64,000 nucleotides of DNA from Leptolyngbya sp. SIO1E4. GTDB taxonomy: Bacteria; Cyanobacteriota; Cyanobacteriia; Phormidesmidales; Phormidesmidaceae. The translations under genes and the position numbers were made by a program. Under the pieces are notes generated by a model, which saw only the letters and a program-made list of their open reading frames with translations, had not been told where the DNA came from and did not search any database. The stretch lies in the NCBI GenBank assembly GCA_010672825.2, contig JAAHFU020000004.1, forward strand, positions 124,001 to 188,000, written 5' to 3'. This document shows positions 42,639 to 58,992 of this stretch, one piece after another (within the stretch, counting starts at the first letter, position 1; each line of letters starts with the position of its first letter).

Positions 42639-45600
42639 CTAGACTTGTAGATTCGCGTCTCTTGATTTCTTCAATCTTTGCTTTAGGCGAACCTTGCCAA
42701 CTGATAATTGCTTACCCAACTCTAAATTTTCCAGCTCTGGCGACGCTATCTGTTGGGGTTGGTTTAGATGCTTAGCGAGAGAGCAAATTGTTGAGTACTT
42801 AAATAAATCCACCAACGAGATATACTCTACCATATTGGGTAAAACATCTTTGAGCTGGCTGTAAACTTTCGTAATCAGCAGTGAATTCCCACCTATCTCA
42901 AAAAAGTTACTATTTACACCTACTTTTTCTAATTTAAGGACAGCTTGCCAAATAGCTGCGATCGTTTGTTCAATATCGTTTTGGGGTGCAACAAAATCAA
43001 CGTCTAGTTCCCCCACAGAACGATCTGGAACAGGAAGCGCACGGCGATCTACTTTGCCATTTGCCGACAGCGGTAAATTTTCCAGAAACATGAAAGCTGA
43101 TGGCAGCATATACTCCGGCAATTGATCACGCAGAAAGCATCGCAGTTCATCAATGGAGATCTCTTGTTTGGAAACCACATAGCCAACTAGCCGCTTTTCA
43201 TTTAGTTGGTTTCCCACTACCGTTACAACTGCTTTACTCACAGCGGGATGCCGCACTAGCACCGCCTCAATTTCTCCTAATTCAATGCGATACCCACCAA
43301 TTTTGACCTGGAAGTCTTCCCGTCCTAAAAACTCAATATTCCCATCGGGGAGATAACGCCCTAGATCCCCGGTTCGATATAATCTTTCACCGGTCTGAGG
43401 ATGCGTAATAAAACTCGCTTTCGTTTTGACTTCCTCACGCCAGTACCCCATCGCCAGGCCAATTCCGCTGATGTAAAGCTGCCCCGGAACCCATACAGGA
43501 CAGGGGGCTAGCGACTCATTGAGCACCTGGAAACCCTGATTGTCCATGGGTCGACCATAGGGAATACTTCTCCAAGCTGGATTAACGTCCTGAACCGGGT
43601 AAAGAATAGACCAAATAGAGGCCTCAGTAGCACCTCCCAAGCTAATGACTTGAACATCTTCAACCAAATCTTTAATCTGAGTTGGCAAGGTTAATGGCAG
43701 CCAGTCTCCACTCAGCAAGATCAATCGTAGGTTTCCTAGGGCCTCAGATTCATTCACTGCGCAATCAACCATCATCTGCATTAAAGCTGGCACTGAGTTC
43801 CAAAGGGTGACCCTGTGCTGGGATATCAGCTGAATCCAGTGAGCTGGCTCACGCTCACATGAGGCATTGGGAATCACAATTGCCCCTCCAGCAGCCAAAG
43901 CGCCAAAGATGTCATAGACTGACAGGTCAAAACTCAGAGAAGATAACGCGAAGACTCGATCAGATGAGCTAACGTTAAAGCGCCGGTTGATATCAAGGAT
44001 TGTATTAACCGCACCACGGTGATTAATCATCACCCCTTTAGGAACCCCTGTAGATCCAGAAGTATAGATGAGGTAAGCAAGGTCATCGGGTTTTTGAACG
44101 GTCTCCAATGGCTCTCTGCTTTCATCTTCTAAATCTTGACTGCCTATACACAGTTGCAGAACATCTTCTGGCCAAGAAAGGTTCTCCTTAAGCCAAGATT
44201 GAGTTAAAACAATATCAATCCCACTATTTTTCAGTAAGTATTCTCTTCGCTCCTGAGGCAGTCCAGGATCAATGGGGACGTAGGCGGCACCGGACGCGAG
44301 GATGCCGATAACTGCTACAATCTGCTCCCATCCTTTCTCCATAACCACAGCGACTAACTGGTTAGGAGCCACCCCTAATGCTCGCAGCCTATGACCAACC
44401 TGATTTGAAAGTTCGTAGAGTTCTTGATAAGAGAGGGTGCGCTGAGGTGAAATGACGGCAGACTCATTTTTCCTGGCTTGCATTTGTGCTGCAAATAAAG
44501 TGTGCAGCATCTCATCAGAGATCGGGGCAACCGTGGCATTGACAAGGCATCGCTGGGCTAACTGGGCAGGCGGGATTAATTGTCGGTTAGGTTCAAGCCA
44601 GGCAGTCTCCGAAGTCGCCAGCCGCTTAAGAAAAAGGCGATAAGCCTCAAACATGTCCTGGATGCAACCGTCAGGGAACAGCTCCTCAACCACATCCCAG
44701 TTGAAGGTCAACGCTCCCTTCTCCTCCCAAACTTGGACATCCATCCACGCTTGAGAAGCTTGACTAATCCCATAGACTAATTCGCCAAAGTGACTGAAGG
44801 TCGACGTTTCCTGACCCAGTGAGCTTAAACCGAGGGTGCTAGTAAAGACAATGGGAATAGCGCTAGGAGCTGTGCCTTGTCTGCGAGCGAGTTCCCGGGT
44901 CACACGGACTCCACTGAAGTATCGGTGCTCTAGATCTCGCCATAATTGTTGCTGTAGGCGGATAGCACGGTCAGTAAATGATTCAGAACCTGCATTGTCT
45001 ATCGTCAACAGTGTCGCGGAGATGAAGTCTCCCAAGATGTCATTTACTTGCGGATGCAGTGGCAGACGATTAAATAGGGCGAGGCTAATGGTAAACCGAG
45101 GATTCCTGTTCCAGACTGTCAAGATCTCGGCAAAAGCGGCTAGTAAAACACCAGACGGGGTTAAACCAGCCTGAGCAGCTCGCTGCTTCAATAGCGGCCA
45201 GTCCGCGCTGTCTAGTTGCGCGTCATAGCGCTTGGTCCGATACTGCTTGAGTTCTCTAGGATTTTTTGCTAGCGGCAAGGTTGGGGCTGGGGGCAGATCA
45301 TCCAGACGGCTCAGCCAATATTGTTGCGATCGCTGATACAACTCCGTTCCTTGTAAAGCTTGCTCGGCTAGGACGTAATCTCGAAAGGCAAGTTCTAAGG
45401 GAACTAACTTAACCTCAGGATCCTGGTAAAGTTGAAACCACTCATCAAACAAGCGGAACAAACTCCACGCATCAAAAATCTGCAGATCGTAGCTGATATG
45501 CAATCGCACAAGCCCGTCATCCAATCGCGTTGCTCTGAATTCAAACAAGGGCCATTTATCAGCTGGCAACACCTGATGAGACATTTGCTGACGCATTGCC

Positions 45601-46112
45601 TCGATCCCTGCAGCAACCTCGTGATCTTCTCGTCCTCTCAGATCTAAAACTTCAATTTGATAAAGCGGCACCTGTTTGAGAACCTGCTGCTGGCCATCCG
45701 GTAACACCACAGCCCTCAACATATCGTGACGCTCAATTACTTTCTGCAGTGCCCAATTGAGTCGTCCCAGATCTAAATCCTGTCCTTCAATCTCGTAATA
45801 ACCATGATTAGCCACAGTTCCTAACTCTAATACCCCGCTGCGCCCCACCCAGAAGGCATGCTGCATATCCGTCAGGGGAAAAGGCTCATAGCGAGACTCT
45901 GGTGCAGGCACAATGGCGGGTAGGGAAGTATCACTGGTACTTATGCTGTTCTGGTGCAACAACATGAGAATCTCTGCTTTATGTTCGACTAACGACTCCT
46001 GCAGCTCTGGCGTCATCACCCCTTTGGGGGCATCAACGAATAGTAAACCTTTATTAGTAGAAAGCTTTACACCTTTGTGAGCAAGATTATCCAGTAGTAA
46101 ATGCAAATTCAT
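42639..46112 (-). CDS. NRPS module TubC-Cy-A-PCP, cysteine heterocyclisation
   Basis: This is a 1157-residue module. Residues 1-55 are a TubC-type docking domain. The next domain is a heterocyclisation (Cy) domain, shown by FPLTDMQ near 78, the DxxxxD motif D209-D214 in place of HHxxxDG, IVFTSTLG near 421, and the QAWMDVQ region. The A domain has YTSGSTGVPKG, FDLSVY (729-733), LWNS, LILLSG, SLGGATE, ASIW and NGKVDR. The code reads DLYNLSLIWK, the established Cys code. The PCP Ser is near 1077 (GGNSL). Together with the neighbouring salicylate genes this predicts condensation of a salicyl thioester with Cys and cyclisation to 2-hydroxyphenyl-thiazoline. No epimerase, reductase or N-methyltransferase is seen. 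The tail is basic, matching a KS partner. A 228-bp gap precedes it, without a clear promoter. Confidence 0.95.
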   Translation of the reverse strand: MNLHLLLDNLAHKGVKLSTNKGLLFVDAPKGVMTPELQESLVEHKAEILMLLHQNSISTSDTSLPAIVPAPESRYEPFPLTDMQHAFWVGRSGVLELGTVANHGYYEIEGQDLDLGRLNWALQKVIERHDMLRAVVLPDGQQQVLKQVPLYQIEVLDLRGREDHEVAAGIEAMRQQMSHQVLPADKWPLFEFRATRLDDGLVRLHISYDLQIFDAWSLFRLFDEWFQLYQDPEVKLVPLELAFRDYVLAEQALQGTELYQRSQQYWLSRLDDLPPAPTLPLAKNPRELKQYRTKRYDAQLDSADWPLLKQRAAQAGLTPSGVLLAAFAEILTVWNRNPRFTISLALFNRLPLHPQVNDILGDFISATLLTIDNAGSESFTDRAIRLQQQLWRDLEHRYFSGVRVTRELARRQGTAPSAIPIVFTSTLGLSSLGQETSTFSHFGELVYGISQASQAWMDVQVWEEKGALTFNWDVVEELFPDGCIQDMFEAYRLFLKRLATSETAWLEPNRQLIPPAQLAQRCLVNATVAPISDEMLHTLFAAQMQARKNESAVISPQRTLSYQELYELSNQVGHRLRALGVAPNQLVAVVMEKGWEQIVAVIGILASGAAYVPIDPGLPQERREYLLKNSGIDIVLTQSWLKENLSWPEDVLQLCIGSQDLEDESREPLETVQKPDDLAYLIYTSGSTGVPKGVMINHRGAVNTILDINRRFNVSSSDRVFALSSLSFDLSVYDIFGALAAGGAIVIPNASCEREPAHWIQLISQHRVTLWNSVPALMQMMVDCAVNESEALGNLRLILLSGDWLPLTLPTQIKDLVEDVQVISLGGATEASIWSILYPVQDVNPAWRSIPYGRPMDNQGFQVLNESLAPCPVWVPGQLYISGIGLAMGYWREEVKTKASFITHPQTGERLYRTGDLGRYLPDGNIEFLGREDFQVKIGGYRIELGEIEAVLVRHPAVSKAVVTVVGNQLNEKRLVGYVVSKQEISIDELRCFLRDQLPEYMLPSAFMFLENLPLSANGKVDRRALPVPDRSVGELDVDFVAPQNDIEQTIAAIWQAVLKLEKVGVNSNFFEIGGNSLLITKVYSQLKDVLPNMVEYISLVDLFKYSTICSLAKHLNQPQQIASPELENLELGKQLSVGKVRLKQRLKKSRDANLQV

Positions 46113-46340: not shown

Positions 46341-47864
46341 TTAAAGACTCAATTTTTCCCGTTCTTCAGCTTCACCAACATCGGCATCAGAAACCACCTC
46401 TGATGAAATTAGGTTCGCCAATGCCAATCGATTTAGCAAAAGATCAGCTAATTCAGCTACTGTACCCTTCTCAAAAAAGTTTCCGATGGGCATTCGCACC
46501 TGTAAATCGGTTTCAATCCGGCTTTTGAGCATCATGGCGAGCAATGAGTCCAGCCATGGAGCAAGGGGGTCTTGAGCATCGAGGTTTGCTGAAGGGCACT
46601 GCAGTAACCCCGCTAAACATTTCAACAGATAGGTTTCTAGCATTGGCTGCCGTTCTGTTGGTTCAGACGCCAGGATCTGTTCTCTTGATATTGTTTCTGC
46701 AGTTGGGCTCTTTTCTGTTGCACCTTCTTCTGGGATCTGGATCTTTTCTTGCTCTGGAGTAACACTAATTGGAGGTGCAGGAACGGGCCCCAACGCCACA
46801 TCGCCCCAGCGCATCACTGTAGCGGCAGCGGTTGCAGCAGCACCGTTAGTGTAAACAAGAACCAAGTCGTTCTCGCGAAGCCGCCCCGATTGAGCAGCAT
46901 GGTACAGGGAGGCAATCGCAGATACAGGCCCAATATTAGTGTATCGAGGGTAGAGATTGAGGGTGCGCTCTGGATCAATACCCAGAGCCCGCGTACAAAC
47001 ACTCGCATACCAGGCAGTCGGAGTACTGAATGCAAAAAAGTCAATTTGATCGAGGGTAACGCCAGCACTCGCGATCGCCCCCTCGCAGCAAGTACGCGCG
47101 AAATCTACAGCCGTTTCAGCCAGCATACTCGCATTGTCCCCCGTTCGAGTTCGTATCCGAGGCATGCCCTGCGCATCTGCCACCAGTTCGTGAGCATAAG
47201 CGCCACAGGTAGTGGTAGTCGGAACTACTTTGCTGCCCAGGATTCCTTGATTGGGTTGAAGCGAATCCACCACAAAGGCTCCTGCCGCATCACCCACCGA
47301 CCAAGAGAGCGTGTCTTCATCATCTGTGGAATTAGATCCCATGTGGGAAACAATCACTAGTACATTGCGATACTCTCCAGCCTGCACCAATGCTCGGGCA
47401 TTCTGAAGTGCAATTAAGGCGCTTGAGCAGGTAGATTCTAGGCTCCAGGCAGGGCAGTGCAGTGCAAGTTGACGAGCCAGGTAAGCGGCATTCCCAGGTC
47501 CAATTTGCTCAGAGAAGAGCGAAGCAACGATGGCTAAACCAATTTCTTCAGAAGACAGTTTCGCGGCTTCAAGGGCATCTTGTGCCGCCTGGCACTCCAT
47601 CGTCAGCGCTGATTCATCTACACCCAGCACCCGCCGCTCAACAGACCCATGGAATGGATCTGACAGATAAGGAGCCACTGCTTGTGACCAAATATCTAAT
47701 CCAGAGTTATCAGCTGTATAGTTAAGCGGTTTAGAGACTCTAACGCGCTTTGGTTTACTCTGCTTTACCAAATTTGGATACTTTTGAGACCAATAATCAT
47801 TGGTTCGAATTTGCCTAGGAAAACTAATTGCAAGTGAGCGAATACCTACATGACAATTGCTCAT
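46341..47864 (-). CDS. KASIII-like acyltransferase/ketosynthase fused to an ACP
   Basis: This is a FabH-like thiolase-fold domain followed by a PP-binding domain. Numbering here is from the longest possible start at 47954. Cys176 (STCSSAL) aligns with the FabH catalytic Cys. An ungapped alignment puts Ser310 (FAFSTPT) where FabH has His of PHQAN, and Asn340 (YTNIG) at the FabH Asn. The ACP Ser is near 470 (PWLDSLL). The C-terminus is acidic (DADVGEAEEREKLSL), which suits docking to the TubC domain of the following Cy-A-PCP protein. I infer it moves the salicyl group onto its own ACP instead of making a carbon-carbon bond. Start: ATG 47864 has AAGGAA 7 nt upstream and fits the family's N-terminus. 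ATG 47954, which overlaps the previous stop as TGATG, adds 30 residues but has no Shine-Dalgarno. Confidence 0.85.
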   Translation of the reverse strand: MSNCHVGIRSLAISFPRQIRTNDYWSQKYPNLVKQSKPKRVRVSKPLNYTADNSGLDIWSQAVAPYLSDPFHGSVERRVLGVDESALTMECQAAQDALEAAKLSSEEIGLAIVASLFSEQIGPGNAAYLARQLALHCPAWSLESTCSSALIALQNARALVQAGEYRNVLVIVSHMGSNSTDDEDTLSWSVGDAAGAFVVDSLQPNQGILGSKVVPTTTTCGAYAHELVADAQGMPRIRTRTGDNASMLAETAVDFARTCCEGAIASAGVTLDQIDFFAFSTPTAWYASVCTRALGIDPERTLNLYPRYTNIGPVSAIASLYHAAQSGRLRENDLVLVYTNGAAATAAATVMRWGDVALGPVPAPPISVTPEQEKIQIPEEGATEKSPTAETISREQILASEPTERQPMLETYLLKCLAGLLQCPSANLDAQDPLAPWLDSLLAMMLKSRIETDLQVRMPIGNFFEKGTVAELADLLLNRLALANLISSEVVSDADVGEAEEREKLSL

Positions 47865-47871
47865 AGCAAAA

Positions 47872-47877
47872 TTCCTT
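47872..47877 (-). promoter_or_regulatory. Shine-Dalgarno deciding the KASIII-ACP start
   Basis: AAGGAA on the minus strand, 7 nt before ATG 47864. The alternative start at 47954 lacks any purine-rich site, so this one favours the shorter protein. Confidence 0.6.
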
Positions 47878-47953
47878 TTCACAGTGATAGGCATCGAGGC
47901 AAGCTGGATGGTAGCAAGAGAACTTAAGGAGGGGGTCACCTGAACGGGAGTCA

Positions 47954-48439
47954 TCAGGATTTTTGACTACACTGCCCCAGAGCGATCGCACTCGCAGCAG
48001 CGTAGGAGGATTCATGGCTAATGCTCAGGAGCCATTTCGTAACCCCTAAATCCATCGCGATCTGTAGACAGTTGTCATAGAGCACGACTGAAGGTTCACC
48101 TGTAGACAACCGTTTAATTTCAATATCGAGCCAGGAAGCGCCTTCATTCAGTGCTTCACCTAGTGCTTTGAGCACCGCTTGCTTCGCAGCCAAACGACCC
48201 GCGAAGTATTCGATACGCTTAGAACCCAATTCACAGACGTTGCGTTCATTAGCGGTGAAACATCCCATTTCCGGAGCCTCACTTAATTGCGCTATGAGTT
48301 TTTGGACACCTTTTGTTTCGACGATGTCAATGCCATGACCGATAACCTCGAGATAGTTAGACGTAGAACTGAGCAAATCCTGAGGGGGGTTGTCATTACC
48401 GCCTAAATATCCAGCCTTCATCCTCAACATGTTGCCCAT
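47954..48439 (-). CDS. AcpS-type phosphopantetheinyl transferase homologue, variant active site
   Basis: This is a 161-residue protein with the AcpS signature: GHGIDIV (Asp38, a Mg ligand), FTANERNVCE, then FAGRLAAKQAVLKALG. The Glu of the usual AAKEA motif, also a Mg ligand in AcpS, is Gln (Q87) here. Activation of carrier proteins from CoA is the family role; the Gln may weaken or change it. About 30 extra residues precede the usual AcpS start. It lies 5 bp below the salicylate synthase stop and its stop overlaps the next possible start by 1 bp, so it is co-translated with the starter genes. It may be dedicated to the ACP of the neighbouring KASIII-ACP; that is inference from position. Confidence 0.85.
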   Translation of the reverse strand: MGNMLRMKAGYLGGNDNPPQDLLSSTSNYLEVIGHGIDIVETKGVQKLIAQLSEAPEMGCFTANERNVCELGSKRIEYFAGRLAAKQAVLKALGEALNEGASWLDIEIKRLSTGEPSVVLYDNCLQIAMDLGVTKWLLSISHESSYAAASAIALGQCSQKS

Positions 48440-48444
48440 CGTGC

Positions 48445-49767
48445 TTATGACTTCAAAACTAGATTGGTCAACATCGTGTTCATCTTGTTAACTGACTCCA
48501 TATACTCTTTTTGAGGCACAGATTCAGCGACGATCCCAGCACCAGCATTGAGATAGACATTATTGCCATATTGATATACAGAGCGAAGGGAGATTGCCAA
48601 ATCTGCTGTACCGTTGCTATCTATCCAGCCAATACAGCCAGCATACATTCCCCTCGGTTCCGCTTCGAGGCGATCGATCCACTCTAAGGCTTGTTGCTTA
48701 TCAATGCCAGAAACAGTAATCCCTGGGAACAATGCTTTCAGAGCATCCCAAGCGGTATTGCCCGGCTTAAGAACCCCCCCAACCCTTGAAGATAGATGTT
48801 GGACAGTCCGATATTTCTTGACCTCCATGAAGTTAAAAACCTGAACGGTTCCTGGTAAACAAATTGAGTCAACCTCGCTTTGTGCCGATAAAACGGAAAG
48901 CGCATGTTCTTTGACCTCTTTAGCATCAGTAAACAGTTCACCCCTTAAGCGCTTATCTTCTTGTTGCTTTTCATCACGAGGTCTGGTTCCTGCTAGCGGA
49001 TTAGTCACAACAGAACGATCTTGGTATACTTCCACAAGGGTTTCGGGACTAAATCCCACGGTACGGACATCTCCGAAGTCCAGACAGTAGGAGCGAGCCG
49101 CATTATTGACTTTTGCCCCAACCACATAGGTTCCCAAGAGATCTAAGTCGCCAGAGAGTCTAAAAGGACGGGAAATAATTGCCTTATGCAATTCACCTTT
49201 TTGGATTGCCTCAATTAAAGTCTTGATGTGGTTCTGATACTTTTCGCGATCAGTAAAATCAACCTCTACAGGAGTTGACACATAATGTGGCAGCTGACTA
49301 TCTTTCAATAAAAGGCTGCGGATTTGGTCTAAAGACCTCGCACTCCTGATATAAACGCCCTCTTGTGTGAAGCGAAGTTCAGTCTCTGGAATCAAAAAAT
49401 AGAGTAACTCTTGCTGGATTGCTTTGGAGTATGAAGAATAAAACCCAGCTACGTCAAACCCAACATAGCCATAGGCTGTCCAATTCTCAATGGGTAAAGA
49501 TCCGAGTAACTCTCCAACTTGCCTAAAGGGATCACTAACTGGCTCGGAGTAAAACTCATCTACACTCGTGAGCGAAACGGTATCTTGGCTTACTGATACC
49601 TTAGCCAGCTCATTACCAGCGATGCGAACCTCATTTTTTTGTTCATACATCACATACTTAGAAAAAATACCTGCTCGCAGGAGATTCTGCAAGACAACAG
49701 TGGGCTCCCTTTGGCTTGATACAAAAGTTTCGTCATACTTTATTGCCGTCTTTAGCTCCATTACCAC
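48445..49767 (-). CDS. Salicylate synthase (chorismate-utilising, MbtI/Irp9/YbtS family)
   Basis: This is a 440-residue member of the chorismate-binding enzymes and best fits bifunctional salicylate synthases, which convert chorismate through isochorismate to salicylate and pyruvate. Landmarks are AYGYVGFDVAGF near 98, LHKAIISR with Lys195 at the position of the MbtI general base, GFSPETLV with Glu242, PLAGTR near 257, KEH with Glu287, FPGITVSGI near 347, and the C-terminal metal-binding Glu421 and Glu424. Length matches MbtI and Irp9, and no pyruvate-lyase partner gene is nearby. It sits between the aryl ligase and an AcpS homologue. Start: GTG 49767 has AAGGAG 7 nt upstream; ATG 49761 is an alternative. 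It supplies the aromatic starter. Confidence 0.9.
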   Translation of the reverse strand: MVMELKTAIKYDETFVSSQREPTVVLQNLLRAGIFSKYVMYEQKNEVRIAGNELAKVSVSQDTVSLTSVDEFYSEPVSDPFRQVGELLGSLPIENWTAYGYVGFDVAGFYSSYSKAIQQELLYFLIPETELRFTQEGVYIRSARSLDQIRSLLLKDSQLPHYVSTPVEVDFTDREKYQNHIKTLIEAIQKGELHKAIISRPFRLSGDLDLLGTYVVGAKVNNAARSYCLDFGDVRTVGFSPETLVEVYQDRSVVTNPLAGTRPRDEKQQEDKRLRGELFTDAKEVKEHALSVLSAQSEVDSICLPGTVQVFNFMEVKKYRTVQHLSSRVGGVLKPGNTAWDALKALFPGITVSGIDKQQALEWIDRLEAEPRGMYAGCIGWIDSNGTADLAISLRSVYQYGNNVYLNAGAGIVAESVPQKEYMESVNKMNTMLTNLVLKS

Positions 49768-49792
49768 TGATCAGCTCCTTATGGATGATTAG

Positions 49793-51331
49793 TCAGTACT
49801 TGCGTAATAATTTACGGTGAACTTTTCCAGTTGAGGTTCGCGGTAGGTTTTCTAAAAAGTGAACCTTTTTCGGTGCCTTAAAATGAGGCAACTGCTGTTT
49901 AGCAAATTTACGAATGCCAGCCTCTAGCTCAGATGATGGTTCTTGCCCTGGTTTAAGGCTTACATAAGCAACAACCTGAGTTAACTGCTCACCACTATTA
50001 GATTCAGGTGCGACTGCAACTTCAGAAATCTGGGGATGCTGATATAAGATATCCTCAATCTCCATAGGCGATATCCACTGACCATTTACCTTAAAGAGGT
50101 CATCAGCTCGTCCCATAAACCTAAAATAACCATCAGAATCGCGCAGATACTTATCTCCGGTTCGCATACAGCTCCCATAGATAGCCTTCCGCGTTTCCTG
50201 GAGTCGATTCCAGTATCCCAGCATCAGACTCTCTCCACTCACCTGTAAATCGCCAATCTCACCAGGAGGACACAGAGAACCCTTTTCATCAACAACTTGA
50301 ACCTCATACCCAGGAACAGGACAACCTGAGTAGCCTGGTTTACATTCTTCTAATCGGTTTGAGAGAAAAATATGCAAAAACTCAGTTGTTCCAATCCCCT
50401 CACAAATTTCTTGGTCGTAACGCTTCAACCACTTTTGCCAGATACTTTTAGGCATTTGCTCGGCTGCAGACACACATAAGCGTAGAGAAGATGCATCTAG
50501 AGGAGAGATATCATCTAAAGCAAGAATATCTGCATAGGCGCTGGGAATGCCAAATAAAACCGTTGGCCGATAGCGCTGGATGTCGGCAATAATATCAAAA
50601 GCATTGCTAGCATCAGACAATACAGCAGCTGCGCCAACCGCCATGGGCATGTAGAGGGTATTCCCTAAACCATAGGCAAAAGCCATTTTAGCAACCGAAT
50701 AGGTGATGTCACCCTTATGCAAGCCAAGCGTAGATCGCCCATAGTACTCCGCACAAGCGACCATACTTTGATGAAGATGAATCACGCCTTTGGGTCGGCC
50801 TGTGCTGCCAGAAGTGTAAAGCCAAAAAGCCGGTTCGTCGCGATAGGTGTCAGCGCAAGATAGCCGTTCGCTAGTTTGCTGGGTGAGTCGAGACACAAAT
50901 GGATGCTTTCCATCTGTAATCACTACATGGCGCAGAAACTGAGACTGGATAGGGGCCAGTTTCTCCTGCCACTCCTGGGTAGTCAGAAAAATTTTAGCTC
51001 GCGAGTCTTGCAGAATATATTGAATATCATCAATGGTGCAAGCCGTATTGATCGGAACCGGTACAGCCCCTAGCCACACAGCACCCCAGAAGGCAAAAAC
51101 AAATTCCGGAGAATCCGGCAAAAGAATAGCAATTCGATTCTCCCGTTCCAGACCAAAATCGGACAGCAATCCAGCAGTGCGTCGAACAAAGCTGTTCACC
51201 TGGGCATAGGTGTAGGTTTCTTCTTGATGGTAAAAGGCCGCTTTCTCGCTGCGTTCCTGCGCCAGATCACCTTCTATGAAGTAAGCTGCAGCATTAAAGA
51301 CACTAGGCAACCGTTCAGAAATACTGTCCAT
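49793..51331 (-). CDS. Aryl-acid AMP/CoA ligase, benzoate-CoA ligase family
   Basis: This is a 512-residue acyl-adenylate-forming enzyme with the N-terminal NAAAYFIEGD pattern of benzoate-CoA ligases, the P-loop YTSGSTGRPKG, EGIGTTE, RTGDKY and the C-terminal catalytic Lys in TSTGKVHRK. It has no attached carrier domain. With salicylate synthase 25 bp downstream and a free ACP upstream, the likely substrate is salicylate, loaded on the ACP (51876-52124) or released as salicyl-CoA. Salicylate-activating enzymes in known phenolate metallophore pathways are usually of the DhbE/YbtE type, so recruitment from the benzoate-CoA ligase branch is of note. The start has AAAGGA 7 nt upstream. Confidence 0.85.
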   Translation of the reverse strand: MDSISERLPSVFNAAAYFIEGDLAQERSEKAAFYHQEETYTYAQVNSFVRRTAGLLSDFGLERENRIAILLPDSPEFVFAFWGAVWLGAVPVPINTACTIDDIQYILQDSRAKIFLTTQEWQEKLAPIQSQFLRHVVITDGKHPFVSRLTQQTSERLSCADTYRDEPAFWLYTSGSTGRPKGVIHLHQSMVACAEYYGRSTLGLHKGDITYSVAKMAFAYGLGNTLYMPMAVGAAAVLSDASNAFDIIADIQRYRPTVLFGIPSAYADILALDDISPLDASSLRLCVSAAEQMPKSIWQKWLKRYDQEICEGIGTTEFLHIFLSNRLEECKPGYSGCPVPGYEVQVVDEKGSLCPPGEIGDLQVSGESLMLGYWNRLQETRKAIYGSCMRTGDKYLRDSDGYFRFMGRADDLFKVNGQWISPMEIEDILYQHPQISEVAVAPESNSGEQLTQVVAYVSLKPGQEPSSELEAGIRKFAKQQLPHFKAPKKVHFLENLPRTSTGKVHRKLLRKY

Positions 51332-51355
51332 CTAACTGTCCTTTAACCTCACGGT

Positions 51356-51814
51356 TTACTGAGCAAGAACATGAACTAACACATGCCCATCCCAATGAAA
51401 CCAATTCGCTAGCCATTCTTGGACACCAAGCGCTTTTGCTTGAATCTTTGCTTCCCCATGGAGAGAAACGGACAATTCGTCGTGTGCAAGATTTGCTTCA
51501 ATCTGATTCCAACCAATTCCAGCGAGTCCAGTGCCTAGGGCCTTCCCCACGGCTTCCTTAGCTGCAAAACAAATTGCATAAAACTGGTAAGAATCATTAG
51601 CGAATTGACAAATCTCTATCTCCTTGGGAGTAAACAACAGGTTCAACGTTTCGGGATCATATCGATCAACTAAGCTAGCAATTCTATAAACAGGTGTGAT
51701 ATCAATACCGACAGCCTTGATCCCGGCTGTCCACCTATGCTCGGAAAACGAAATTTCAGCGCTTCGTTTTATAAAAGCTGCTATCTCATTTAGGTGCTGC
51801 TGATCAAATTGCAT
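51356..51814 (-). CDS. AcpS-type phosphopantetheinyl transferase
   Basis: This is a 152-residue AcpS-fold protein with both Mg-ligand motifs intact: AVGIDIT (Asp38) and FAAKEAVGKALGTG (Glu87). FTPKEIEIC corresponds to the AcpS segment between them. About 30 residues precede the conserved start and show no recognised domain. It lies directly between the free carrier protein and the aryl ligase, and is probably co-transcribed. It is the second AcpS homologue in 4 kb, although a general Sfp-type enzyme is encoded at 58171. A dedicated role in activating the free ACP is plausible but inferred. Confidence 0.85.
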   Translation of the reverse strand: MQFDQQHLNEIAAFIKRSAEISFSEHRWTAGIKAVGIDITPVYRIASLVDRYDPETLNLLFTPKEIEICQFANDSYQFYAICFAAKEAVGKALGTGLAGIGWNQIEANLAHDELSVSLHGEAKIQAKALGVQEWLANWFHWDGHVLVHVLAQ

Positions 51815-51875
51815 TCCTGTCCTCTTCGACTTGCAACTCCCCTAAGAGATCTTCCCCTCAGAGATCTCAAACTTC

Positions 51876-52124
51876 TCATTGAGAACTGGTAGCCACCGCC
51901 GCTTCAATCAAACCACAGACTTGAATCAGCGTCATATCTTGCCGAGATTCAAGCTTTACACTGACCCCTAGCCTACGCTTCAGCCCTAGCGAAACCTCTA
52001 CTGTCTCCGTAGAGTCAAGCTGCAAATCTTTGTAAAGCAGAGTCTCTTCATGAAGAGACTCTGCTGAAATTCCTAAATCAACAAGTATTGCCTTTAGAAC
52101 ATCCATCACCTCTTGAATATCCAT
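51876..52124 (-). CDS. Free-standing acyl/aryl carrier protein
   Basis: This is an 82-residue acidic helical protein with the carrier motif LQLDSTETVE; Ser38 would carry phosphopantetheine. It heads a tight run of five same-strand genes (carrier, AcpS, ligase, salicylate synthase, AcpS-like), so it is the likely first acceptor of activated salicylate. No Shine-Dalgarno is evident before ATG 52124; ATG 52106 is an alternative. A candidate promoter lies about 70 nt upstream. Confidence 0.85.
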   Translation of the reverse strand: MDIQEVMDVLKAILVDLGISAESLHEETLLYKDLQLDSTETVEVSLGLKRRLGVSVKLESRQDMTLIQVCGLIEAAVATSSQ

Positions 52125-52766: not shown

Positions 52767-53534
52767 TCACAACTGCTGGCTAGTGATTCTATTCAAGGTT
52801 TGGTCTAGGGACTGCAGCAGCAGCGATCGCGCAGTATGGATGAAAAAGTGATCGCCAAGAAACATTTGCGTTGAGAAAGCGGCATTAGTTTGCTCTTGCC
52901 AGGCTTCCAACATTGCACAACTTACATCTGGATCCTGCAAACCCCCAAAAGTCGTTATGGGGCAATTTAACGGTGACTCTGACTGATAGGTGTAGGTTTC
53001 AAGGATTTCAAAGTCTGCTCTAAGGGCTGGTAAGAGCAATTGCATCAACTCTTTATTAGCAAGCACTGCCTCCGGTGTCCCATTCAGGCGTCGCAATTCC
53101 TCTATAAACTCAGAATCCGGCAAGGTGTGAATAGGAGGACCTGCATCGGGTATTTGAGGGGCACGGCGACCAGAGACAAACAGGTGCATCGGACTACGAG
53201 CATGGATTCGACGGAGGAAACGAGCGACCTCAAAGCTAGTCAGTCCACCCATACTATGCCCAAAGAAAACAAAGGGTTTGTTGAGATAGGGAATGAGAGA
53301 CTGTGCAATCCCCTCAGCTAGCTGAGCTAGCTGAGTATAGGGAGGCTCATTGAGTCGCATCCCTCTTCCAGGAAGTTCAATGGGGCAGACCTCTATCGTA
53401 GAAGGTAATTGTTTGGACCAGTCGCGAAAGCTCAGAGCGCCACCGCCAGCGTAGGGAAAGCAAAATAGTCGCAGACTAGCCTGAGGATTAGGTCTAGGGC
53501 AGGTTACCCAGGAATTAGAAGGGGCAAGAATCAT
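52767..53534 (-). CDS. Type II thioesterase (editing alpha/beta-hydrolase)
   Basis: This is a 255-residue stand-alone thioesterase of the NRPS/PKS proofreading family. The opening LFCFPYAGGGA and ELPGRG segments are typical. The nucleophile is Ser94 in GHSMGG, the acid is Asp201 or Asp203 (GGLQDPD), and the base is His229 (GDHFFIH). It is expected to free stalled or mis-primed carrier proteins in the cytoplasm. It lies 80 bp below the MbtH gene on the same strand. It is not the terminal release enzyme of the assembly line, which must lie outside the window. Confidence 0.93.
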   Translation of the reverse strand: MILAPSNSWVTCPRPNPQASLRLFCFPYAGGGALSFRDWSKQLPSTIEVCPIELPGRGMRLNEPPYTQLAQLAEGIAQSLIPYLNKPFVFFGHSMGGLTSFEVARFLRRIHARSPMHLFVSGRRAPQIPDAGPPIHTLPDSEFIEELRRLNGTPEAVLANKELMQLLLPALRADFEILETYTYQSESPLNCPITTFGGLQDPDVSCAMLEAWQEQTNAAFSTQMFLGDHFFIHTARSLLLQSLDQTLNRITSQQL

Positions 53535-58170: not shown

Positions 58171-58992
58171 TTAATCATCGCGCTGTACAACGCCTTGACT
58201 ATTGATGTAAGGAAAGGGCACTGTCCGGTACTCTAAGCCCGGGGTGGCCCAGCCAACCTGTATTCGTAGTGGGTCATCAAGGTATGCAGCCACAGCCAAG
58301 CAATGTTGCTGAGTTGAGTTAAGCAATGCAAACTTCCAAGCTTGCGCCGATTCTGGTTCGAATAGCGGATTAAACTGAATTGTCCCAATAGCGTTTAGAC
58401 TAAATCGAACCTGTCGAAGCGGCATCGACAAACCCTTACCTTGAGCTTTGACGTAGGCCTCCTTCAATGTCCAGAGGTTAAAGAAACGTTGGCTCCAAGC
58501 TCGCCCCGCCAACAGATTCAACTCTGCGAGTTCTTCGGGTGCGAAGCTCAACTCCGCGATCGCCGGCAAATCTCCTGTCCGAGCCATACATTCCACGTCT
58601 ACCCCTACCGCTGCTGACTGGGTAATCGCACAGACAACAAGCCCATCTGTGTGAGACAGATTAAATCGCAGTGGCGGTTGCCCACTCCCCTCTTGAATTT
58701 CAGGACGTCCGTAAGGGTTCGTTGAAAACATCCACTCTCCAGGCTCACATGCACCATAGCGAGACAGACTACTGCGCAGTAGGGCATGGGCAACTAAATA
58801 TTCGTGGCGATGTTGAGGAAAGCGGAAACGGTCATAACGCGATCTCTCCTGCTCATCTAACCAAGCTAAATAGGTACTCATGAGTTCAGGCTGACAGCAT
58901 CGGTTTGGCTGCGCCATCCACACATGAACGTCACCGACACGCAGTGAGTAAATTTGTGAATCTGCTGAAGCTGTATACTCCACGCTTTCCAA
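58171..58992 (-). CDS. Sfp-type 4'-phosphopantetheinyl transferase
   Basis: This is a 273-residue protein of the Sfp/HetI type, twice the size of AcpS. Motifs are FRFPQHRHEYLVAHALLR, NPYGRPEI, FNLSHTDG near 110, the Mg-binding VGVDVE (Asp132, Glu134), and WTLKEAYVKAQGKGL (Glu178). It activates ACP and PCP domains broadly. Cyanobacteria typically rely on one such enzyme for both primary and secondary metabolism, so this may be the housekeeping copy or one serving the megasynthases. It stands alone on its strand, with gaps of 283 bp below and 426 bp above. Confidence 0.92.
   Translation of the reverse strand: MESVEYTASADSQIYSLRVGDVHVWMAQPNRCCQPELMSTYLAWLDEQERSRYDRFRFPQHRHEYLVAHALLRSSLSRYGACEPGEWMFSTNPYGRPEIQEGSGQPPLRFNLSHTDGLVVCAITQSAAVGVDVECMARTGDLPAIAELSFAPEELAELNLLAGRAWSQRFFNLWTLKEAYVKAQGKGLSMPLRQVRFSLNAIGTIQFNPLFEPESAQAWKFALLNSTQQHCLAVAAYLDDPLRIQVGWATPGLEYRTVPFPYINSQGVVQRDD

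What the first reader, a model, noticed from the sequence alone, without database searches (positions are those of the whole stretch)
46341..52124. Two-carrier salicylate starter relay feeding a cyclising NRPS
Salicylate synthase, an aryl ligase of the benzoate-CoA ligase family, a free ACP, two AcpS homologues and a KASIII-ACP didomain lie in one tight same-strand run directly before Cy-A(Cys)-PCP. Known phenolate pathways (yersiniabactin, pyochelin, mycobactin) load salicylate through a DhbE/YbtE-type enzyme straight onto an ArCP. Here the family facts and order suggest ligase to free ACP, to KASIII Cys, to KASIII-linked ACP, to the Cy domain. The relay order is inference.
Basis: partly seen in the sequence, partly recalled or inferred. 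Interest (0 to 1): 0.8.

Follow-up and report, generated by a model that had tools for sequence, protein, structure and literature searches.

The report
KASIII adaptor hands salicylate to NRPS
A known cyanobacterial metal-chelator gene cluster appears to load its salicylate starter on one small carrier protein and then pass it, through a repurposed fatty-acid enzyme fused to a second carrier, to the peptide assembly line; this gives a testable job to a gene whose role had been left open.

Summary
The genes are as described, and the cluster is already published: ORF lengths match fatuamide genes FatA-FatO. The paper has FatD load salicylate on FatB and gives FatG, the KASIII-ACP, no role; a KSIII-ACP was also drawn in the anachelin cluster in 2014. 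I found no description of the relay in what I searched and read.

Evidence by step. Ligase to free ACP: published in vitro for a probably homologous pair, no CoA listed. Free ACP to KASIII cysteine: inference; Cys invariant in 40 of 40 didomains, FabH histidine absent in 40 of 40. KASIII-linked ACP to Cy: strong. Two independent lineages fuse KASIII-ACP to Cy-A-PCP, one keeping the free ACP; FatG's tail and the next protein's docking hairpin change type together (30 and 6 pairs, none mixed; one to three events). Where the same cassette sits beside a type II PKS instead, FatG is absent (7 of 7 stretches); two genomes hold both kinds, with FatG only in the NRPS one.

So FatG is best read as an adaptor between a type II carrier and an assembly line. 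Side result: FatC and FatF look like complementary AcpS halves.

The parts
51876..52124 (-). FatB, free type II acyl carrier protein; Ser38 in a Q-L-D-S-T motif; no docking tail
51356..51814 (-). FatC, AcpS-like half: keeps the Asp and Glu motifs, has lost the SISH motif
49793..51331 (-). [quoted passage not shown]
48445..49767 (-). FatE, salicylate synthase
47954..48439 (-). FatF, AcpS-like half: keeps GxP and SISH motifs; the Glu of KEA is Gln here
46341..47864 (-). FatG, KASIII-ACP didomain (1524 nt as published; ORF open from 47954)
47427..47429 (-). codon of the KASIII nucleophile Cys176 (ORF numbering from 47954)
   Evidence: invariant 40 of 40
47025..47027 (-). codon of Ser310, at the position of the FabH catalytic His
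   Evidence: Asn in 39, Ser in 1, His in 0 of 40
46545..46547 (-). codon of Ser470, phosphopantetheine site of the KASIII-linked ACP
   Evidence: Ser 40 of 40
46344..46367 (-). C-terminal tail EEREKLSL, docking motif towards FatH
45951..46097 (-). TubC_N docking domain at the N terminus of FatH
   Evidence: PF18563, 56 bits, cut-off 26
42639..46112 (-). FatH, docking-Cy-A-PCP, first NRPS module
52767..53534 (-). FatA, thioesterase; possible editing enzyme
58171..58992 (-). Sfp-type phosphopantetheinyl transferase near the cluster

Best explanation
FatG is a carrier-to-carrier adaptor. FatE makes salicylate. FatD adenylates it and loads it on the free type II ACP FatB (shown in vitro for a probably homologous pair, not for this one). 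FatG's KASIII cysteine takes the salicyl group from FatB and passes it to FatG's own fused ACP without any Claisen condensation (inferred). That ACP docks on FatH through its acidic-hydrophobic tail and FatH's N-terminal TubC hairpin, so that the Cy domain can couple salicylate to cysteine and close the thiazoline (docking strongly supported, chemistry from the published product). FatB belongs to a carrier class that Sfp reads poorly and is probably activated by the FatC/FatF pair; the FatG-linked ACP has the hydrophobic residue after its serine that Sfp-readable carriers have. FatG thus joins a portable salicyl-ACP cassette to a modular line.
For: (1) Loading: gloSCL with ATP, Mg and salicylate, and no CoA in the listed mixture, gave salicyl-gloACP (PMC11744666 sections 11 and 25; the ACP was a Q31G/T35L double mutant). 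A matching locus, L155 (chromosome of 5,431,448 bases, probably Gloeocapsa PCC 7428, not named by the tool), has FatD and FatB homologues at 71% and 67% identity and gives Q31/S34/T35 by position if started at its first Met. (2) Non-condensing KASIII: Cys 40/40, Asn340 40/40, FabH His 0/40; in fatuamide A the salicyl carbonyl carbon is itself part of the thiazoline (PMC11877528). (3) Last hand-over: KASIII-ACP-Cy-A-PCP single chains in L039 and L141, independent on the tree, and L141 keeps free FatB, FatD and FatE; a FatH-like protein downstream in 36 of 40 and fused in 2; tails with RE pair with hairpins bearing [IV][DN]A in 30 of 30, tails without RE pair with L[RH]I[RL]A in 6 of 6; the window's FatB has no such tail. 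(4) Internal control in the window: tails before TubC_N proteins (FatG, FatK, FatN) are acidic and end hydrophobic, tails before KS-first proteins (H, I, J, L, M, O) are basic. (5) Context swap: 7 of 7 cassettes next to a KS/CLF-like pair lack FatG and FatH in the 19-20 kb read; five of these seven genomes have no FatG at all at E 1e-20, and the other two, G412 and G426, hold a second, NRPS-type cassette, and FatG is in that one. (6) Carrier classes: residue after the Ser is Leu in 40/40 FatG ACPs but Thr in FatB in 26 of 31 loci with FatC and 0 of 11 without it. (7) Precedent: ChlB3 moves 6-methylsalicylate from one carrier to another (PMC9573744 passages).
Against: No experiment on these proteins. 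Transfer from FatB to the FatG cysteine is not shown for any homologue. FatG lacks the FabH His and is not shown to have the His-Asp pair of ChlB3/CerJ, so what activates its cysteine is unknown. FatD sits in a family of CoA ligases. The stand-alone KASIII relatives of FatG lie beside CoA-ligase-like genes with no ACP seen, which would suit CoA as donor. The docking patterns were written after seeing the sequences; tail type changed at most three times on the tree and only one change is forced by well-supported branches. The FatB/FatC association rests on only 2-3 independent pairs, and five loci with FatC have no Thr. The seven type II PKS stretches have FatC but no FatF.
Confidence: 0.7

Rival explanations
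1. Published model: FatD loads salicylate on FatB and the pathway goes straight on to FatH; no role is given to FatG.
For: PMC11877528 section 7. FatB is next to FatD wherever both could be read whole.
Against: The window's FatB lacks a docking tail. In L141 the ACP next to Cy in the same chain is the KASIII-linked one, yet free FatB is kept. Cassettes beside a KS/CLF-like pair lack FatG.
Confidence: 0.1
2. FatD makes salicyl-CoA; the FatG cysteine takes salicylate from CoA, as PqsD does with anthranilate; FatB is secondary.
For: FatD is in the benzoate-CoA ligase family, best solved relative the anthranilate-CoA ligase 4wv3. PqsD has a solved covalent anthranilate complex, 3h77. Stand-alone FatG relatives lie beside ligases with no ACP seen.
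Against: FatB is kept wherever the cassette could be followed. The probably homologous gloSCL loads its ACP in a mixture with no CoA listed.
Confidence: 0.15
3. FatD loads the FatG-linked ACP directly; the KASIII fold is only a scaffold, and FatB serves something else.
For: Nothing found points to it; it is not excluded by any search.
Against: Invariant KASIII Cys in 40 of 40; FatB kept beside FatD; in the type II PKS loci no other ACP matched in the 19-20 kb read, though only FatB and the FatG ACP were used as queries.
Confidence: 0.05

Closest known systems
Fatuamide A gene cluster (fat), Leptolyngbya sp. ASX22JUL14-2, PMC11877528
   Same: Same genes, order and lengths; this is that cluster or a near-identical one
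   Different: The paper gives FatG no role in its main text and does not describe a two-carrier relay
Anachelin cluster, Anabaena cylindrica PCC 7122, PMC4247773
   Same: KSIII-ACP protein, salicylate synthase and ligase drawn as salicylate starter genes (2014)
   Different: No transfer route described in the section read; Ser-derived oxazoline instead of thiazoline
gloPKS of Gloeocapsa PCC 7428, PMC11744666
   Same: Homologous ligase and free ACP by my inference; salicyl-ACP formed in vitro
   Different: Feeds a KS/CLF type II PKS; no FatG in the matching locus L155 or its genome
ChlB3 of chlorothricin (and CerJ), PMC9573744
   Same: KSIII-like enzyme; ChlB3 moves 6-methylsalicylate between two carriers through a cysteine
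   Different: Donor is an iterative PKS, receiver a separate ACP, and the acyl group ends on a sugar-bearing product, not in an NRPS; Cys-His-Asp triad, not shown for FatG
Coumermycin/clorobiocin CouN1, N2, N5, N7
   Same: Two-carrier relay of an aryl acid (recalled, apart from a CouN7 passage in PMC8748450)
   Different: Late acylation of a sugar, not a starter for an NRPS; KASIII part recalled only
Yersiniabactin, pyochelin and mycobactin salicylate loading
   Same: Salicylate start (and Cy-A(Cys)-PCP logic in the first two); recalled
   Different: DhbE/YbtE-type ligase loads the ArCP that feeds Cy (recalled)

Membership tests
fatuamide A cluster | Gene order and lengths of FatA-FatO | tested here: met
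   13 of 15 ORF lengths equal Table 2 as listed; FatG equal from 47864, and FatI (7950 listed, 7944 published) equal from the Met two codons in. FatP is cut by the window edge. DNA was not compared.
KSIII-like acyltransferase (ChlB3/CerJ) | KASIII fold with a nucleophilic Cys | tested here: met
   Foldseek best hit FabH, TM by target 0.87; Cys 40/40
KSIII-like acyltransferase (ChlB3/CerJ) | Cys-His-Asp triad | tested here: inconclusive
   Asn kept 40/40 and FabH His absent 40/40; no residue-level alignment to ChlB3 was made
KSIII-like acyltransferase (ChlB3/CerJ) | Carrier-to-carrier acyl transfer | not testable with these tools
   needs protein assays
FabH condensing enzyme | Cys-His-Asn triad | tested here: not met
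   FabH His position is Asn in 39 and Ser in 1 of 40
DhbE/YbtE-type aryl loading | Ligase of the DHB/salicyl-AMP ligase family | tested here: not met
   TIGR02262 over cut-off; best solved relatives are anthranilate- and benzoate-CoA ligases
beta-hairpin docking pair | TubC_N domain on the acceptor, short charged C-terminal motif on the donor | tested here: met
   PF18563 on FatH; tails and hairpins in 36 pairs; binding itself not testable
AcpS | Asp and Glu of the Mg site together with the SISH motif in one protein | tested here: not met
   Distinct rows: FatC Asp 27 of 27 readable, Glu 29/29, SISH-like 0/29; FatF SISH-like 27/27, Glu 6/27, Asp 6/27, both in 3/27, so three FatF are complete by this test; the window's own pair is not

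The most novel reading that the evidence does not exclude
FatG founds a class of KASIII-ACP adaptors that lift an aryl starter from a type II ACP that Sfp cannot activate onto a modular NRPS line. The same portable salicyl-ACP cassette serves type II PKSs without the adaptor, and its carrier is activated by a FatC/FatF hetero-oligomeric AcpS in which one subunit supplies the metal site and the other the opposing face. This would also explain why the cognate PPTase alone failed on gloACP.
Probability: 0.5. Interest if true: 0.72.

Novelty: new variant of a known kind. Interest (0 to 1): 0.6.

Why it matters
It gives a concrete job to a conserved gene left unassigned in the fatuamide paper, and it shows how nature may plug a type II starter cassette into a modular line: a portable cassette, a KASIII adaptor and a matched docking pair. 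This is useful for assembly-line engineering. It also offers an explanation for the failed activation of gloACP by its own PPTase.

Tried and rejected
Rejected: FatG as a condensing KASIII (FabH His absent in 40/40; the published product has no extra two-carbon unit). Rejected: the two AcpS genes as part of the relay proper (both absent from 8 of 40 didomain stretches; three of these genomes, G129, G191 and G338, have no match to either gene at E 0.01). Apparent exceptions followed up: L038 has no FatH nearby, but a 71% match to the FatH N-terminal part lies at the start of another contig of that genome; L166 (G446) showed a cassette without FatG in the 16 kb read, but a 56% didomain-length match lies further along the same contig. 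Lone salicylate synthases without the cassette in the stretch read: L081 (G213) and L082 (second copy in G278), not explained. Led nowhere: leptochelin paper not held; CoA- or ACP-binding residues of FatG do not discriminate (the FabH Arg position is Trp in 40/40; mapping, role recalled); no coordinates of the model could be read, so active-site geometry was not examined. No paper was read whole. Named sections: PMC11877528 s.7, PMC12210259 s.7, PMC4247773 s.9, PMC11744666 s.6, 8, 11, 25 (each also as passages or outline). Passages only: PMC9573744, PMC12971057, PMC12664062, PMC5605751, PMC8748450, PMC9113145, PMC6562677. That I found no description of this relay rests on all ten paper searches and on those texts; supplements were not readable.

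One search counted FatC and FatF with L033 and L095 both in; the counts here are the distinct rows.
Full report
What is there. [quoted passage not shown] The own genome has 8.22 Mb in 12 contigs, and the window is C4:124001-188000.

It is a published cluster. Table 2 of the fatuamide A paper (PMC11877528, section 7 read) lists FatA 768, FatB 249, FatC 459, FatD 1539, FatE 1323, FatF 486, FatG 1524, FatH 3474, FatI 7944, FatJ 7944, FatK 6654, FatL 3456, FatM 4650, FatN 4638, FatO 3678 nt. Thirteen of the fifteen window ORFs have these lengths as listed; FatG does from 47864, and FatI does from the Met two codons after the listed start. DNA was not compared. The paper says FatD attaches salicylate to FatB and predicts FatH to add and cyclise cysteine; FatG occurs once in its main text, in the table. 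The anachelin paper (PMC4247773, section 9 read) already shows a 'KSIII acyl carrier protein' beside salicylate synthase and ligase. The lusichelin paper (PMC12210259, section 7 read) goes from ligase to the first NRPS and names no carrier relay.

Distribution. In 386 cyanobacterial genomes FatG-like KASIII occurs at 24 places in 19 genomes at E 1e-20. They fall into didomains inside phenolate clusters and stand-alone proteins. A scan of named genomes gave 60 loci, all but three (L135-L137, myxobacterial or deltaproteobacterial, no ACP domain matched) cyanobacterial by title. Of 39 stand-alone loci examined (L040 and L110, L041 and L127 are duplicates) 36 have a ThDP-enzyme homologue, 26 a ligase homologue and 23 an aromatic ammonia lyase homologue (Pfam checked in L041, L043 and L044 only). 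I built a set of 40 didomains: window, 8 unnamed, 31 named.

Free ACP and ligase stay with FatG. Free ACP, ligase and salicylate synthase all lie in the stretch in 32 of 40. For L035 the ACP lies just beyond it. For L092, L100, L107, L113 and L138 a ligase of 65-73% identity with an adjacent free ACP lies elsewhere in the genome. L039 and L104 are cut by contig ends, and L104's ligase reads in two frames.

The KASIII. Foldseek on the predicted model (mean pLDDT 80.8) finds FabH first and also PqsD, including its covalent anthranilate complex. Cys176 and Asn340 are 40/40; the FabH His position is Asn in 39 and Ser in the window. Over the first 24 homologues, stand-alone ones included, His stands there once, in L046. 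Acyl transfer without condensation is the natural reading, and the published product has no inserted two-carbon unit. ChlB3 does this for 6-methylsalicylate with Cys-His-Asp (PMC9573744, passages). FatG's own way of activating its Cys is not known.

The last hand-over. In L141 (Iningainema tapete) and L039 (unnamed) KASIII, ACP, Cy, A and PCP are one chain. The KASIII tree puts them in different well-supported groups, two changes. L141 still carries free ACP, ligase and salicylate synthase. In 36 others, the window included, a FatH-like protein follows, in 29 within 500 bases and in seven after a gap of about 1.8 kb. In that gap lies a flavin enzyme: Pfam Trp_halogenase in the three tested and homologues of it in the other four. 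L085 ends at a contig end; L038 has its FatH homologue on another contig. Tails containing RE pair with hairpins [IV][DN]A in 30 pairs; tails without it pair with L[RH]I[RL]A in 6; none is mixed. The patterns were written after seeing the sequences. The docking review (PMC9113145, passages) describes two salt bridges between tail and second hairpin strand, so an Arg/Asp to Glu/Arg exchange is what compensation would look like; I did not map the positions onto a solved pair. The tree needs three changes of tail type and only one is forced by well-supported branches, so this is one to three events, not 36. Inside the window the code is consistent: acidic, hydrophobic-ending tails before TubC_N proteins, basic tails before KS-first proteins, none on FatB.

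Context swap. Seven loci (L079, L080, L155, L156, L158, L160, L161) hold free ACP, FatC, ligase and salicylate synthase beside a KS/CLF-like pair (Pfam for L079; the others by 74-99% identity to it), with cupin, cyclase and SRPBCC homologues in six by comparison and similar neighbours visible in L080, and with no FatG or FatH in the 19-20 kb read. Five of these genomes (G005, G070, G413, G437, G448) have no FatG match at E 1e-20 anywhere. The other two, G412 and G426, hold a second cassette, L157 and L159, of the NRPS kind, and that one has FatG. The ligase tree nests L079 and L080 inside the FatG-linked ligases (quick method; the other five were not in that tree). The gloPKS paper (PMC11744666, sections 6, 8, 11, 25 read) reports salicyl priming of holo-gloACP by its ligase with no CoA in the listed mixture, and that wild-type gloACP was activated neither by Sfp nor by its own PPTase, whose folding the authors leave open. 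That L155 is that locus is my inference from chromosome length (recalled), gene content and residue numbering.

Two carrier classes and two half enzymes. The residue after the carrier serine is Leu in 40/40 FatG ACPs. In FatB it is Thr in 26 of 31 loci with FatC in the stretch and in 0 of 11 without (Fisher 1e-6, but only two to three independent pairs). By distinct rows FatC keeps Asp (27 of 27 readable) and Glu (29/29) and has no SISH-like motif (0/29); FatF has the motif and the GxP proline in 27/27, while Asp is kept in 6, Glu in 6 and both in 3 of 27. AcpS active sites lie between subunits (recalled), so a mixed oligomer is likely. Against this: three FatF look complete, and the seven type II PKS stretches have FatC without FatF. 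Elsewhere in two of those genomes another AcpS-family gene lies; L144 (G005) looks complete, L145 (G070) does not. G008, whose FatC has no FatF nearby, has a complete-looking one, L146, and G336, with neither, has L147.

Verdict. Observation confirmed. The relay is the best reading, with the middle step unproven. New variant of a known kind.

Noticed in passing
window 51356-51814 and 47954-48439; 29 distinct FatC and 27 distinct FatF rows: The two AcpS-like proteins look like complementary halves of one AcpS: one keeps the metal-site residues, the other the opposing GxP and SISH motifs.
   Followed up: partly
L079, L080, L155, L156, L158, L160, L161: Type II PKS-like clusters in cyanobacteria, probably salicylate-primed, share the FatB-FatC-FatD-FatE cassette.
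   Followed up: yes
L040-L052 and the stand-alone loci among L110-L142: Stand-alone KASIII relatives of FatG sit beside ThDP enzymes (36 of 39), ligases (26) and aromatic ammonia lyases (23), sometimes chorismate mutase and tyrosinase; an unexplained aromatic pathway.
   Followed up: partly
L088, L090, L096, L099, L101, L102, L103, L133: Homologues of a Trp_halogenase-family gene lie in these 8 of the 39 non-window didomain loci; in seven of them one lies between FatG and FatH, so the carrier-bound salicyl may be halogenated there; none matched in the window.
   Followed up: partly
L135, L136, L137: FatG relatives with a ThDP-enzyme homologue in myxobacterial or deltaproteobacterial records, two of them in long ORFs of 690 and 742 residues.
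   Followed up: no
L081, L082: Salicylate synthase homologues (54% and 62%) with none of the other cassette genes in the 16-20 kb read.
   Followed up: no
window 58171-58992: An Sfp-type PPTase close to the cluster could activate the assembly-line carriers.
   Followed up: no
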